Below are positions 1-5,159 of a stretch of DNA of 49,234 nucleotides, piece by piece. A program made the position numbers and the translations under genes. Origin of the DNA: Chthonomonadales bacterium (GTDB taxonomy: Bacteria; Armatimonadota; Chthonomonadetes; Chthonomonadales; CAJBBX01); the NCBI GenBank assembly GCA_020849275.1, contig JADLGO010000042.1:1-49234 (forward strand), given 5' to 3'. Under the pieces are notes generated by a model. The model did not search any database, was not told the origin of the DNA, and saw only the letters and a list, made by a program, of their open reading frames with translations. The stretch's first letter is position 1, and every line of letters begins with the position of its first letter.

Positions 1-2662
1 CGTTGCGACGGATCTGCCCGCTGCCCCAGGCGTAGGCCGCCGTCCAGTTGGAGCCCTGTTTCTCCAGCAGGGGCAGGGTTCCTGCGTAGAGCGTCTCCGT
101 CGTCACCCCGCCCGCCGTGCGGCTGAAGCGCCGGCCCAGCGCGTCGTAGGCGTAATCGACCGTCGCGCCGCCGCTGGTGATGCTCACGAGCTGGCCGTCG
201 TAGTCGTAGCTCAGGCTGTGGCTGGTTCCCGAGAGCGTGCGGCCCGTCTGCTCGCCGTTGTCGTTGTACCCGTAGCTGTTGATGAAGCCGCCCGAGGTGC
301 TCGTCAGCGCGTCGTCCGCGTTGTAGCTGAAGCTCGTGGTGACGTTGTCGATGGTCTGAGAGGTGCGGTTGCCCACCCCGTCCACGCTGTAGGTGGCCGT
401 GAAGGCGTGCGCGCCGGTGCGCGTCTCGCCCACCAGGCGCCCGATCCCGTTGTAGTCCCAGGATACCGTCGAGTTGCCCGCCTCCGTGCAGGAGGTCCGC
501 TGGTTGTCGTCGTCGTAGCCGTAGCTGAAGGAGGAGAGCACCGTGCCGGTGCTGGTGCGGTTGGTCACGCTCGTCAGGCGCCCGGCGTCGTCGTAGGCGC
601 GGGTGGCCGTGGTGCCGTTGGGGTTGCTCAGGCTCGTCTGCGCCCCGGTGGCGTTGTAGCCGTAGGTGGCCGTCCCGGCCGTCTCCGTCACCTGGTAGAG
701 CTCGTTGCGGCCGGTGTAGGCCAGGGTGGTCGTCCGGGAGCTGGCGTCGGTGAAGGAGGAGAGCAGCCCCTTCTTGCCCGTGGCGTCCCAGGCGTAGCTC
801 ACCCGCGTGCTGCCGCCCAGGCTCTCGGCGGTCAGGCGGCCGGCGTTGTCGTAGGTGCGCGCCCACGTGCCTCGTGCGTCCGTCCATCCGATCAGGTGGT
901 TGCCGGCATCCCACGTGAAGCTCGGGTCGGTCCCGGTCGGGTAGTCGATGCCCACCACCCGGTTCCATTCGTCGAGCGTGTAGGTGGTCCCCCGCCCCAG
1001 CGCGTCGGTGCGCCCGGTGCGCGCGCCCAGGGCGTTCACCGCGAACTGCGTCTCGTGGCCCATGTGCGTGGTGACGCTGGTGAGCTGCCCGTGGGTGTCG
1101 TAGCCGTAATCGGTGGTGTGGTCGTTGTCGTCGGTCTTGCTGGCCAGGGTGCCGTTGGTGTTGGGGGTGTAGTCGGTGGTGGAGCGCACCACGCCCCCGG
1201 AGTCCTTGAGCTGCACCCGCGTGAGGTTGCCGCTGGTGTCGTAGGTGCTCACGGCCTGCTTGCCCAGCTCGCTGGTGGCCGTCAGCACCTCGTTGAAGGT
1301 GTTGTAGGTCCACGTGGTGGCGTGGCCGAGCGGGTCGGTGGCGGTGAGCTGGTTGCCGGCGCCGTCGAAGGTGGCGTCCCAGTGCTTGCCCCGTCGGTCG
1401 GTGACGCGCGTGACGAGGTTGGCGCTGTTGTAGGTGTAGCTCTCCGTGTTGTTGAGCGGGTCCACCACGGAGGAGAGCCGCTTGCTCTGCGTATCGTAGT
1501 TGTGCTTGGTCGTCTTGCCGTTGGGGTCGGTGACGGTGGTCTGCCCCATCGTGTAGGCGTAGGTCGTCTGGTTCTGGTAGGGGTCCCTGGCCCAGTCCAG
1601 GCTGTTGTCGGTGTAGTAGGCGAAGGTCCAGCTCTTGCCCCGCGGGTCGGTGAGGCTGGTGATGCAGTGGCTGGCGCTGTAGCCGAGCTCCAGGTCGTAG
1701 GCGGTGGGGGCGCCGCCCACCGTCACCTCGGGCAGTTCGACGCGGGTCAGGTTGCCGGAGGTGTAGGCGAGGCCCCACTGGCGCCCGAGCGGGTCGGTGA
1801 TGTAGTCGACCTTGCCGTTGGAGTAGTGAAGGGTGAGAGTGCGGTTGCTCGGGTCGACGATGCTGGTCAGGTAGCCGTTGGAGCGGTTGAGGCTGATGGT
1901 GTTGCCGTTGCGGTCGGTGATGGTGGCGCAGTACCAGTTGCCGCCGGTGGCGGTGAAGTGGTAGGTCACCTGCTCGCGAGTGGTCAGGTCGAAGGCGGTC
2001 CACTGCAGCGGGTTGCCGCTGGACTCCAGGCGCTCGAAGATCCCGCTCGGGGGCGTCCAGGTAGCGCCGTTGTCGGTGGTGACGAAGCTGTAGGAGAGGC
2101 CGGTGTCCCAGGTGAGGGTGAAGGTGGAGGATGTGGCGACGGCGGCGATGTCGGCGTAGGCCATCGTCCACTTGTAGCCGAGCTCGTCGTTGTGGGAGCC
2201 CTGGCTGTTGTGGTAGAGCGCGAAGCGCACCGGCATGCCGCCCCGGGCCGTCCAGCCGACCAGGGGGAGGGTGGTGAGCTTGTTGCCGTTGCCGGTGTTG
2301 ACGTCGCCGATGCTCCCCTCCCAGGGGTAGCTGGGCCCGGGCGCCGGGCTGAGGGTCACGGCGTGCTGGGGCACGGAGCCGAGCAGGGCGTAGCGGCCCC
2401 GCTCCGGCACGCTCAGGCGCGGCGGGCGGGGCGCGCGGGGGCCGGAGCCGCCCCATGCGGGGCCGGCCAGGCGCCAGGGTCCGCGGCTGGATTCCGGCCG
2501 CGCGCCGCCTGGCGGGGCGTGCGGGCGCTTTGCGGCGCCGGGCCCGGGGCGTCCGGGCGCCGAAGGCAGGGCCAGCGCGGAAACGGTTGACGACCAGAGG
2601 AAGCAGACGGCCACAACGGGCGCCAGTCGGCGCCAGCGCCGCGTCCATCGTCGGCGGTACAT
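1..2662 (-). CDS. RHS/YD-repeat secreted protein, 3' end outside window
   Basis: The reverse strand is open from an ATG at 2662 to the window edge, giving at least 887 residues. It begins with an arginine-rich n-region and a hydrophobic signal peptide (about residues 1-28, LAPVVAVCFLWSS), followed by a Pro/Gly/Ala-rich linker. The rest is typical RHS material: an N-terminal segment with FALYHNSQGSHNDELGYKW, then many YD-type repeats, for example VTDPNGKTTKHNYD and VDYAYDALGRRFSRT near the window edge. RHS proteins form hollow beta-barrel shells that often enclose a C-terminal toxin; that end lies outside the window, so no toxin or immunity gene can be named. A GGGAG ribosome-binding site lies about 11 bases before the ATG. 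The upstream region contains a G15/C15 tract and a perfect TATAAT. RHS-family assignment is firm; role (toxin delivery or surface structure) is unknown. Confidence 0.85.
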   Translation of the reverse strand, partial: MYRRRWTRRWRRLAPVVAVCFLWSSTVSALALPSAPGRPGPGAAKRPHAPPGGARPESSRGPWRLAGPAWGGSGPRAPRPPRLSVPERGRYALLGSVPQHAVTLSPAPGPSYPWEGSIGDVNTGNGNKLTTLPLVGWTARGGMPVRFALYHNSQGSHNDELGYKWTMAYADIAAVATSSTFTLTWDTGLSYSFVTTDNGATWTPPSGIFERLESSGNPLQWTAFDLTTREQVTYHFTATGGNWYCATITDRNGNTISLNRSNGYLTSIVDPSNRTLTLHYSNGKVDYITDPLGRQWGLAYTSGNLTRVELPEVTVGGAPTAYDLELGYSASHCITSLTDPRGKSWTFAYYTDNSLDWARDPYQNQTTYAYTMGQTTVTDPNGKTTKHNYDTQSKRLSSVVDPLNNTESYTYNSANLVTRVTDRRGKHWDATFDGAGNQLTATDPLGHATTWTYNTFNEVLTATSELGKQAVSTYDTSGNLTRVQLKDSGGVVRSTTDYTPNTNGTLASKTDDNDHTTDYGYDTHGQLTSVTTHMGHETQFAVNALGARTGRTDALGRGTTYTLDEWNRVVGIDYPTGTDPSFTWDAGNHLIGWTDARGTWARTYDNAGRLTAESLGGSTRVSYAWDATGKKGLLSSFTDASSRTTTLAYTGRNELYQVTETAGTATYGYNATGAQTSLSNPNGTTATRAYDDAGRLTSVTNRTSTGTVLSSFSYGYDDDNQRTSCTEAGNSTVSWDYNGIGRLVGETRTGAHAFTATYSVDGVGNRTSQTIDNVTTSFSYNADDALTSTSGGFINSYGYNDNGEQTGRTLSGTSHSLSYDYDGQLVSITSGGATVDYAYDALGRRFSRTAGGVTTETLYAGTLPLLEKQGSNWTAAYAWGSGQIRRN

Positions 2663-2738
2663 GGCGGCATGTCTCCCTTTCCGGACTGCTTGCGGGCGCC
2701 AGAGCGCTCCCACTTCGCATTCCGGTACCAGCATTTGC

Positions 2739-2753
2739 GGGGGGGGGGGGGGG
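2739..2753. repeat. 15-base G homopolymer upstream of the RHS gene
   Basis: An uninterrupted run of 15 G on the plus strand (C on the RHS sense strand) lies 77-91 bases upstream of the RHS start codon, in the divergent region between the RHS gene and the Asp-box gene. Tracts of this length are prone to slippage, so the length may vary between cells or may be a sequencing or assembly estimate. Confidence 0.9.
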
Positions 2754-2794
2754 CGAGTCCTTCTTCCGCGCGCCCAGATCCCGAAAAACCGGCA

Positions 2795-2800
2795 ATTATA
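2795..2800 (-). promoter_or_regulatory. Candidate -10 box for the RHS gene
   Basis: The minus strand reads TATAAT here, inside one of the few AT-rich patches of the region. No convincing TTGACA-like box is present 16-18 bases upstream. If used, transcription would start near 2788 and the poly-C tract would lie in the RHS 5' leader. Confidence 0.3.
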
Positions 2801-2909
2801 CGGGGAGGGAACACGATGCGCGTGCGTGTCGCGCGCATCGCCGCCGGAAGGTGAGCGCCGGGGACTCGGCGAACAGGTTCGCGTCCCGCACGCACCCCGG
2901 AGGTCCACC

Positions 2910-5159
2910 ATGCGAACGCTCGCACTCGCCGCCGCAGCCCTGCTGCTCACCACGCTCGCGGCGCGCCGGCCGGCCCGGCAGCCCGTGCGTTGGGAGCCCG
3001 TCGGCCTCTCGGGCGGCGGCGCCATGTTCACGCCGGCCATCAGCCCCGTGGACCCGCAACGGATGCTCGTCAACTGCGACATGAGCGCCGCGTACCTCTC
3101 GGAGGACGGCGCGCGCTCCTGGCGCATGCTGCGCTACGACCAGCTTCGCTCCAACATCCGGTGCCGGCCAGCGTTCCACCCCACCGACGCGCGCACGGTA
3201 TTCGCGGCCGGCGGCTGGGATGGCATGAAGGTGAGCCGCGACGGCGGAGCGACCTGGGAGCCGATCGGCGGCCTGCGAGACGAGCTGCGCGGCGAGATCC
3301 GAATCGACCCCGACGACCCCCGGCGCATGCTCGCGGGCACGGCGGCACACGTGTTCCGCTCCGCCGACGGCGGCGCAACCTGGACCGAGTGCGATGCACC
3401 CCGCGGCGAGCCGATGGCCTTCCACTTCGACCGCACGAGCCCGCCGGGCGCGCGCGTCTGCTTCGCAGCCACCAACGAGGGCATCTGGCGCTCCCGCGAC
3501 GCCGGGCGCACCTGGGAGAGCGCCATGGCCGGCCTGCCTCCGCGTGGCATTCAGGCCTTTGCGGGCGGATCGAGCCCCGGCGGCGAGGTCGTGCTCTACT
3601 GCGCCGTGCCGGGCGAGGAGCGCGAGGGCAGGTACGCGGGCGGTATCTACCGCTCCACCGACCGCGGCGACACCTGGCAGCCGGCGATGGGGCCAGGCCT
3701 CAACGTGGAGACCAGGGCGTTCGACGAATGGGCGATGGGCCCCGTCGCCCAGTACCTGCGGCTGGCCACCTCGGACGCGCGCCCGCGCACGGTCTACGCC
3801 CTCAACTCCAACACCGGCGTGCCTCCCCCACACCACGCCTCGGTCTACCGCTCCGACGACGCCGGAGGCTCCTGGCGGCCCACCTTCCAGGCCGACCCAC
3901 GGTTCCCTGGCTGCAACGTGGAGCCAGACTACACCGTGGCGACCGATGGCCAGTTCTACCAGGATCTGCCGTCGATGGCCGCCTGCTCCACCGACCCGGA
4001 CCGGTTGCTGCTCGTGGACGGCGGACGCTGTTACATCACGAGCGACGGCGGCCGGAGCTGGCGCTGCGGGCACACGCGGCGCGCCGACGCCGGCGGGCGG
4101 CCCGGTCCGGACAGCCGCTGGGTCTGCAACGGTCTGGTGGTGACGACCACCTGGAACACCTACGCGGACCCGCACGCCCCGGCCAACCGCTACATCTGCT
4201 ACACCGACATCGGCTTCGCCCGCTCCACCGACCGCGGCGCCACCTGGCAGTGGTGGCCGCTCCAGGGGCGCGCGCCGTGGCGCAACACCTGCTACGAGCT
4301 GGCGTTCGACCCGGACGCCGCCGGGAAGGTGTGGGGCGCCTTCTCGAACGTGCACGACATCCCCAACGACAACATCATCTCCGGCCGCCACAACAGCCGT
4401 GGCCCCGGCGGCGTCTGCGTGAGCACCGACCACGCCCTGACCTGGACGCCATCGAGTGCCGGCCTCCCCCGGGCCCCGGTGACCTCCGTCGTGGTGGACC
4501 CTCGCAGCCCCCCCGGCCACCGCGTGCTCTACGCCGGCGTCTTCGGCGAGGGGGTCTACCGCTCGACCGACGGCGGGAGTACCTGGGAGGCGCGGAACGC
4601 CGGCCTGGGAGCGCCGGACAACCGGCGGGTGTGCCGCGTGGCGCTGCACCGCGACGGCACGCTGTTCGCGCTCGTGACCGCCATGCGCCGCAACGGGCGC
4701 TTCCTGCCGGAGGGAGTGGGCCTCTACCGCTCGCGCGATGGCGGCGGACACTGGGAGAGCGCCGCGACACGGTTCCTGTGGCCCAAGGACTTCACCGTGG
4801 ACCCGCGCGACAGCCGCACTGTCTACCTGGGCGCCTGCGACGCGAACTCGGAGGAGCAGGGCGGCCTCTACCGGACTCGCGACGGCGGCGCCACCTGGAC
4901 CCGCATCGCGCGCAAGGGCCCGGAGCACTTCGGCGCCTACCTCCACCCGGCGCGCCCCGGATGGATCTACGCCACGCTCACCGAGGGCGCGCCGGGCGCG
5001 GGCCTCTGGCTCAGCCGCGACGGCGGAGCCACCTGGCAGCCGATGCGAGGCCTGCCCTTCGCCAACGCCCAGCGCGTAGCGGTGGACCCGGACGACCCGG
5101 ACCGCATCACCGTGACGACGTTCGGCGGCGGCGTGTGGCGGGGGCCCGCGGCCGGGTAG
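2910..5159 (+). CDS. Secreted Asp-box (BNR) beta-propeller protein, GH74/sortilin-like
   Basis: A 749-residue protein starting at an ATG preceded by CCGGAGGT (6-base spacing). Residues 1-20 (LALAAAALLLTTLAA) form a signal peptide. The body carries about twelve Asp-box motifs of the form S/T-x-D-x-G-x-x-W, such as SRDGGATWEP, STDRGDTWQP, TSDGGRSWRC and STDGGSTWEA. These mark consecutive blades of one or two seven-bladed propellers, as in GH74 xyloglucanases, Vps10/sortilin and sialidase-like proteins. Its length is close to GH74 enzymes, but I could not identify catalytic residues, so a non-enzymatic carbohydrate- or protein-binding role remains possible. It lies 154 bases upstream of the tricorn-like protease on the same strand and may be co-transcribed with it. 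The fold is well supported; the substrate is unknown. Confidence 0.8.
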   Translation: MRTLALAAAALLLTTLAARRPARQPVRWEPVGLSGGGAMFTPAISPVDPQRMLVNCDMSAAYLSEDGARSWRMLRYDQLRSNIRCRPAFHPTDARTVFAAGGWDGMKVSRDGGATWEPIGGLRDELRGEIRIDPDDPRRMLAGTAAHVFRSADGGATWTECDAPRGEPMAFHFDRTSPPGARVCFAATNEGIWRSRDAGRTWESAMAGLPPRGIQAFAGGSSPGGEVVLYCAVPGEEREGRYAGGIYRSTDRGDTWQPAMGPGLNVETRAFDEWAMGPVAQYLRLATSDARPRTVYALNSNTGVPPPHHASVYRSDDAGGSWRPTFQADPRFPGCNVEPDYTVATDGQFYQDLPSMAACSTDPDRLLLVDGGRCYITSDGGRSWRCGHTRRADAGGRPGPDSRWVCNGLVVTTTWNTYADPHAPANRYICYTDIGFARSTDRGATWQWWPLQGRAPWRNTCYELAFDPDAAGKVWGAFSNVHDIPNDNIISGRHNSRGPGGVCVSTDHALTWTPSSAGLPRAPVTSVVVDPRSPPGHRVLYAGVFGEGVYRSTDGGSTWEARNAGLGAPDNRRVCRVALHRDGTLFALVTAMRRNGRFLPEGVGLYRSRDGGGHWESAATRFLWPKDFTVDPRDSRTVYLGACDANSEEQGGLYRTRDGGATWTRIARKGPEHFGAYLHPARPGWIYATLTEGAPGAGLWLSRDGGATWQPMRGLPFANAQRVAVDPDDPDRITVTTFGGGVWRGPAAG

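What the first reader, a model, noticed from the sequence alone, without database searches (positions are those of the whole stretch)
2739..2753. G15 tract ahead of an RHS gene: possible phase-variable expression
A 15-base homopolymer lies in the likely 5' leader of the RHS gene, between a perfect TATAAT (2795-2800, minus) and the start codon. Such tracts change length by slippage and commonly tune surface genes. No other homopolymer of this length is seen in the window.
Basis: partly seen in the sequence, partly recalled or inferred. Interest (0 to 1): 0.5.

Follow-up and report, generated by a model that had tools for sequence, protein, structure and literature searches.

The report
Slippery G-run before an RHS gene
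A run of 15 G's sits in front of a large RHS (surface or toxin-type) gene in an Armatimonadota-like bacterium, and because RHS genes across that phylum repeatedly carry such slippery runs at their front ends, it is most likely part of a genetic on/off or dimmer switch rather than a random stretch.

Summary
The G15 run (2739-2753) is real. It is the longest homopolymer in the window and the longest G/C run in the 4.8-Mb genome. It lies in a 247-nt divergent intergenic region, 76 nt upstream of the RHS start (ATG at 2662, minus strand), downstream of the only TATAAT in the window. On its own the locus cannot show phase variation, but relatives give strong support. Among RHS genes sharing this N-terminal module in the phylum, 22 of 93 have a G/C run of 8 or more within 450 nt of the module, against 1 of 60 for secreted binding-protein genes from the same genomes (p about 1e-4). 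In many, the run lies between a Shine-Dalgarno start and the RHS body and puts the body out of frame. One has a heptanucleotide repeat there instead; in one genome two copies have C10/C11 behind a perfect TTGACA. Two genomes differ by three G's in the run, the only indel in 2.1 kb. So RHS genes here look like contingency loci. The window's own tract is of the leader type: it does not shift the frame, and how length would act is inferred. Confidence 0.6 for this locus, higher for the phylum pattern.

The parts
2739..2753 (+). G15 homopolymer (C15 in the RHS transcript)
   Evidence: unique at this length in the genome
2795..2800 (-). TATAAT, candidate -10 element of the RHS promoter
   Evidence: only perfect match in the window, 0.30 expected; no -35 found; not conserved in the C56 copy
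2673..2680 (-). Shine-Dalgarno-like AAAGGGAG of the RHS gene
   Evidence: read
2..2662 (-). RHS-repeat gene, 5' 887 codons, Sec-like signal peptide at the N terminus; 3' end beyond the contig
   Evidence: gene caller; Pfam RHS_repeat 1.7e-44, DUF6531 0.00056, the latter below its cut-off
1..199 (-). RHS core end that is repeated on other contigs (C56 96% over 199 nt; C43 98.5% over 137; C30 100% over 87)
2712..2776 (.). about 65-nt segment holding the tract, absent from the paralogous leader on C56, bounded by GCGCtCCC / GCGCgCCC
2663..2909 (.). divergent intergenic region
2910..5159 (+). divergent gene, BNR/sortilin-type beta-propeller protein

Best explanation
The G15 run is a hypermutable simple sequence repeat in the 5' control region of an RHS gene. 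Slipped-strand mispairing would change its length from cell to cell. Because it sits in the leader (or around the promoter) and not inside the reading frame, a length change would raise or lower RHS expression, through promoter or leader geometry or access to the ribosome site, not by frame switching. It belongs to a wider habit of this phylum (Armatimonadota) of placing mutable G/C runs at the 5' ends of RHS genes. Shown: the tract, its place, the recurrence of tracts at RHS 5' ends, out-of-frame arrangements and length differences in relatives. Inferred: slippage at this locus, effect on expression, and benefit (only some cells showing a costly, polymorphic surface or toxin protein).
For: Longest homopolymer of the window and longest G/C run of the genome, in the RHS leader. 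G/C runs >=8 within 450 nt 5' of the RHS N-terminal module: 22 of 93 RHS loci (21 of 92 without the window) against 1 of 60 SBP_bac_8 loci from the same set of genomes, Fisher p=1.0e-4; 20 of 91 after also dropping G017:C158, which I had seen with a tract beforehand, p=1.6e-4. In the 80 fetched loci, 17 such runs in 31.4 kb at -400..0, 2 in 64.5 kb at -1500..-600, none in 45 kb inside the module. 14 genes have an SD-bearing start codon upstream of an SSR that precedes the RHS body (13 homopolymers, one heptamer), in several families. G019 has (CCCAACG)7 at the place where its relatives have G or C runs. G148 paralogs have TTGACA-TA-C10/C11 upstream of the start. G178 and G183: 95.8% identical over 2141 nt with 3 gap columns; tract G8 against G11 with 100/100 identity on each side. 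A second leader-type case in the same family: G005 RHS with G12 168 nt before its ATG.
Against: No second strain of this species was available, so length variation here is unseen (one search found nothing; own records may be left out). Tract is in a non-frame position, and no -35/-10 pair brackets it (read). Leader RNA does not fold better than shuffles (z=+1.6). The C56 paralogous leader, next to an RHS remnant, lacks the tract. 71 of 93 RHS loci show no G/C run >=8. G runs >=12 occur in 127 of 291 genomes of the phylum, also near other genes. Genus-level test is weaker: 13 of 43 against 1 of 28, p=0.005; strict 10 of 43, p=0.023.
Confidence: 0.6

Rival explanations
1. Neutral homopolymer: G runs grow by slippage in GC-rich intergenic DNA, where nothing selects against them, and this one happens to lie before an RHS gene.
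For: G>=12 runs occur in 127 of 291 genomes of the phylum. In G000, 9 of the 11 runs >=9 away from contig ends are intergenic by my gene caller: 8 of the 10 listed, plus this one. The paralogous leader lacks it.
Against: Excess at RHS 5' ends over a matched secreted-protein control; runs inside the 5' coding part of several RHS genes, where neutral runs should be removed; a heptamer repeat at the same place in one gene.
Confidence: 0.27
2. The tract serves the divergent BNR/sortilin gene (start 2910, 156 nt from the tract) or both genes, for example as a G-quadruplex-prone or promoter-upstream element.
For: It lies in the shared divergent region; fifteen G's are, from general knowledge, just enough for a one-base-loop quadruplex. 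In genus g7 two genomes have G13/G14 upstream of orthologous GH42-like genes in divergent regions.
Against: The recurrence across genera is with RHS genes; I did not see an RHS-BNR pairing in the relatives that I read, though I did not search for it systematically. The only TATAAT points to RHS.
Confidence: 0.08
3. Assembly or sequencing artefact (poly-G calls or wrong length).
For: Draft genome of 73 contigs; G/C runs lie at the very ends of contigs C7 and C11, as assembly breaks at such runs would give.
Against: The tract is internal; both its flanks align with the C56 leader; similar runs occur in many independent assemblies, including single-contig G015 (C8).
Confidence: 0.05

Closest known systems
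Transcriptional phase variation by poly-C in the promoter spacer (Neisseria fetA, PMC5320596 passages seen; porA seen there by passage and reference; Bordetella fim recalled)
   Same: Homopolymeric G/C tract 5' of a surface protein gene; length thought to set expression. G148 RHS paralogs have the run directly behind TTGACA.
   Different: In the window no -35/-10 pair brackets the tract; it lies 41 nt downstream of the only TATAAT. Phylum and gene family differ.
Translational (frame) phase variation of contingency genes (Neisseria, Haemophilus, Campylobacter; search listing)
   Same: Relatives' RHS genes have a start codon, then an SSR, then the body out of frame.
   Different: Window tract is upstream of the start codon and cannot switch the frame.
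RHS main gene with displaced orphan tips (Salmonella, PMC3967940 abstract; Ornithobacterium, PMC13183296 passages)
   Same: Window RHS core end is repeated in other contigs, next to tandem copies of the core-end repeat on C30 (4 copies) and C43 (6 copies), with different sequence between them.
   Different: There variation comes by recombination; an SSR switch at the 5' end of RHS genes is not mentioned in the passages read.

Membership tests
SSR contingency locus (phase-variable gene) | Long repeat tract beyond chance | tested here: met
SSR contingency locus (phase-variable gene) | Tract length varies between closely related copies | tested here: inconclusive
   Met in relatives (G8/G11 with identical flanks, C10/C11, C10/C7); no second copy of this locus with a tract
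SSR contingency locus (phase-variable gene) | Length change switches or tunes expression | not testable with these tools
   needs reads and reporters
Frame-switch (translational) type | Tract lies between start codon and body of the gene | tested here: not met
   Start with SD at 2662 lies 76 nt downstream of the tract; no SD-bearing start upstream
Promoter-spacer (transcriptional) type | Tract between -35 and -10 boxes | tested here: not met
   0 sigma-70-like sites in 2200-3200; other sigma types not covered
RHS/YD-repeat polymorphic protein | RHS repeats | tested here: met
   PF05593 1.7e-44, 4 stretches
RHS/YD-repeat polymorphic protein | Conserved core followed by exchangeable C-terminal tips, with displaced tips nearby | tested here: inconclusive
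   Repeated core ends on C30, C43, C56, C66; linkage to C42 is inferred from overlaps, not assembled
RHS/YD-repeat polymorphic protein | Toxin activity of the tip and immunity by its neighbour | not testable with these tools
   Pfam gives no recognised toxin family for 10 cassette ORFs; one HEAT-repeat and one WD40 ORF among them

The most novel reading that the evidence does not exclude
RHS genes throughout Armatimonadota are contingency loci. The mutable repeat has moved, or arisen again and again, between promoter spacer, leader and 5' coding region, and has even changed type (G, C, heptamer), while the switch itself is kept. Combined with orphan-tip arrays this makes a two-layer system: stochastic on/off at the 5' end and tip exchange at the 3' end, with most genes caught in the off frame.
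Probability: 0.5. Interest if true: 0.75.

Novelty: new variant of a known kind. Interest (0 to 1): 0.58.

Why it matters
SSR phase variation is best known from host-adapted pathogens. Its recurrent use on RHS genes in a little-studied phylum would suggest that contingency switching also serves competition between microbes, and would explain why many RHS genes in these genomes look frameshifted: they may be switched off, not dead. In the papers searched I found no report of SSR phase variation of RHS genes or of phase variation in Armatimonadetes (no paper with both terms; the name Armatimonadota was paired only with Rhs: two papers listed, not read).

Tried and rejected
Frame-switch reading for the window: rejected, because the start with SD and signal peptide lies downstream of the tract and upstream starts lack SD. 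Promoter-spacer reading: no boxes. Leader hairpin: fold no better than shuffles; the minimum-energy fold pairs part of the C run with the GGG of the SD, but this structure has ensemble frequency 0.0039 and that pairing is absent from the centroid. G-strand DNA fold: z=-0.47. Rfam: nothing in the window. A mobile unit carrying the tract: the region is single-copy apart from C56. Programmed frameshifting instead of phase variation: disfavoured, because the frame offset is not constant (1, 2 and 0 occur) and one gene has a heptamer, but the bias to out-of-frame (13 of 14) keeps it open; P(at most 1 in frame of 14 at 1/3) = 0.027, with related genes counted separately. One search's output was cut between L242 and L254, so tracts of 7 in that stretch were not read.

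Biases in the counts: the 93 loci are 13 loci from all E<=1e-10 hits in 31 genomes of the order (the 14th row there is the second half of one G006 gene) plus 80 loci from the listed rows. I took rows down to E about 1e-38 with the N-terminal module present; that list was itself cut. One row (G017:C158) was added out of order and its contig had been seen with a tract; counts without it are given. L242 (Gly-rich coding) and L271 (N beside the tract) are doubtful; without them, the window and G017:C158 the count is 18 of 91 with p=4.8e-4, or 18 of 89 with p=4.0e-4. Genera without a control locus remain in the genus test; among the 28 genera shared by both sets it is 8 against 1. The control rows were chosen by me from the listed rows, spread over genomes, before their 5' ends were seen.

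Full report
Observation. The window is the whole of contig C42 (49,234 nt) of a 4.8-Mb, 73-contig genome, 71% G+C. The G15 at 2739-2753 is the longest homopolymer in the window and the longest G/C run in the genome. A codon-based gene caller written here places the RHS gene at 2-2662 on the minus strand, open at the contig end, and a BNR/sortilin-type gene at 2910-5159 on the plus strand (Pfam). The RHS protein begins with what I read as a Sec-like signal peptide, behind AAAGGGAG. The tract is therefore in the 247-nt divergent region, 76 nt before the RHS start, and would be read as C15 in the leader if TATAAT (2795-2800) is the -10. That hexamer is the only perfect one in the window (0.30 expected), but no -35 is seen.

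A second copy of the leader. Contig C56 carries an RHS core-end remnant (96% over 199 nt with window 1-199), followed by a stretch 77% identical over 102 nt to window 2768-2869. In a gapped alignment the C56 copy lacks about 65 nt (2712-2776) that hold the tract; the missing stretch is bounded in the window by GCGCtCCC and GCGCgCCC, and TATAAT is not kept. Since the C56 RHS piece has no N-terminal part, its leader may be decaying; the comparison does not say whether the tract was gained here or lost there.

Relatives in the order. The N-terminal 330 residues were searched in the 31 genomes of the order; 11 have a match at E<=1e-10. At 13 loci I read the 5' ends. Tracts of 8 or more near the start: window C15 (RHS sense); G005:C5 G12, 168 nt before the ATG; G018 G10, G013 G12 and G015 C8, all between an SD-bearing ATG and a twin-arginine-type signal (my reading). 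G019 has seven CCCAACG units at that same place. In these four frame-type genes (G018, G013, G015, G019) the first SD-ATG is out of frame with the RHS body at the assembled length. G013 also has a second frame break further on. No tract near the start in G005:C15, G001, G021 (C9 1147 nt upstream), two G006 loci, G024 and G017:C288.

Phylum. A profile from ten of these (A2) matches 120 of 291 genomes at E<=1e-12; the best named match is an Armatimonadetes MAG (L192), which is how I name the phylum. I fetched 80 further 5' regions. G/C runs >=8 number 17 in 31.4 kb at -400..0 of the module, 2 in 64.5 kb at -1500..-600 and none in 45 kb inside it. A first-order Markov model of the 600 nt upstream gives 6.5 runs on average, at most 15 in 200 draws, against 19 seen. 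As a matched control I took 60 SBP_bac_8 (secreted binding protein) 5' regions from genomes of the same set: 1 of 60 has such a run, against 22 of 93 RHS loci (21 of 92 without the window, p=1.0e-4; 20 of 91 without a row whose tract I had seen before, p=1.6e-4). Mean G+C of the two sets of 5' regions is alike, 0.589 and 0.572. By genus: 13 of 43 (window's genus left out) against 1 of 28, p=0.005.

Anatomy in relatives. In genus g23 and family f29 a start with a strong SD and a signal-like segment is followed by a run of 7-12 G's, after which the RHS body usually continues in another frame. Counting genes with an SD-bearing start and an SSR (run >=8 or the heptamer), 13 of 14 are out of frame: L157, L158, L159, L161, L226, L229, L230, L264, L282, L283, L284, L286, L298; in frame: L292. 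The skew is mild (p=0.027 if one third were expected in frame). In G148 two paralogs have a perfect TTGACA, then TA and C10 or C11, 38-40 nt before their start, the layout of spacer-type promoters such as fetA (PMC5320596, passages). Length differs between near copies: L282/L283 are G8/G11 with 100 of 100 identical bases on each side, and only 3 gap columns occur in 2141 aligned bases at 95.8% identity; L229/L232 G8/G7; L254/L290 C10/C7; L225/L227 C10/C11.

What this says of the window. The general claim, that RHS genes of this phylum carry mutable switches at their 5' ends, is well supported by position, frame, type change and length change. The window's tract is one of two leader-type cases in its own family (the other is G005:C5). 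By analogy it should tune or switch RHS expression; how is open. Its C run can pair with the SD in one low-weight fold, but the leader as a whole is no more structured than shuffles.

RHS context. The RHS core end is repeated 4 times on C30, 6 times on C43, and at the ends of C56 and C66, with different sequence between copies, as in orphan-tip arrays of other bacteria (PMC3967940 abstract; PMC13183296 passages). Ten cassette ORFs gave no recognised toxin family; one is a HEAT-repeat and one a WD40-repeat ORF. That the array follows the window's gene is inferred from the overlaps.

Literature. Searches pairing Rhs or polymorphic toxins with phase variation, homopolymeric tracts, SSRs or slipped-strand mispairing, and Armatimonadetes with phase variation, gave no report of this. 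Passages read in PMC1574311, PMC3352902, PMC6211672, PMC4287609 and PMC9263626 did not describe it either; most listed papers were seen as listings only, and supplements were not read.

Noticed in passing
L145 (C30) 2868, 4176, 5193, 6678; L146 (C43) 737, 1963, 2887, 4416, 5404, 6465; L086 (C56) 1-432; L147 (C66 end): Array of repeated RHS core ends (186-229 nt, 73-94% alike) with different ORFs between them: orphan RHS tips, with a HEAT- and a WD40-repeat ORF among them.
   Followed up: partly
L145 1-127 and 7498-7624: Contig C30 has identical 127-nt ends: a closed loop in the assembly graph, either an array artefact or a small circle carrying four RHS tips.
   Followed up: no
window 2816-2854 (+); L086 507-545 (+): Twelve-codon ORF with an SD (MRVRVARIAAGR*) that keeps start, stop and length in the C56 copy (MRARGACLAAGG*) without indels; 5 of the 12 residues differ.
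   Followed up: partly
L095 4081-4093 (G009), L096 4097-4110 (G011): G13/G14 in divergent regions upstream of orthologous GH42-like genes in two species of one genus; homology stops at the tract on one side.
   Followed up: partly
L104 4072-4083 (G007), L105 3362-3373 (G010): Conserved C12 (coding sense) inside the 3' part of a sigma-70 region 4 gene in two species: possible phase-variable regulator.
   Followed up: no
L098 4056, L101 4020, L103 3531 (G008, G005): Three homologous loci with G12/G19/G13 at matching places in a roughly 700-nt conserved region with only short, doubtful ORFs; Rfam finds nothing.
   Followed up: partly
L302 (G017:C158), sense -219..-202 and -133..-124: Second RHS locus of this genome with C17 and A9 runs ahead of a Tat-like signal, and a stop inside the matched part.
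   Followed up: partly
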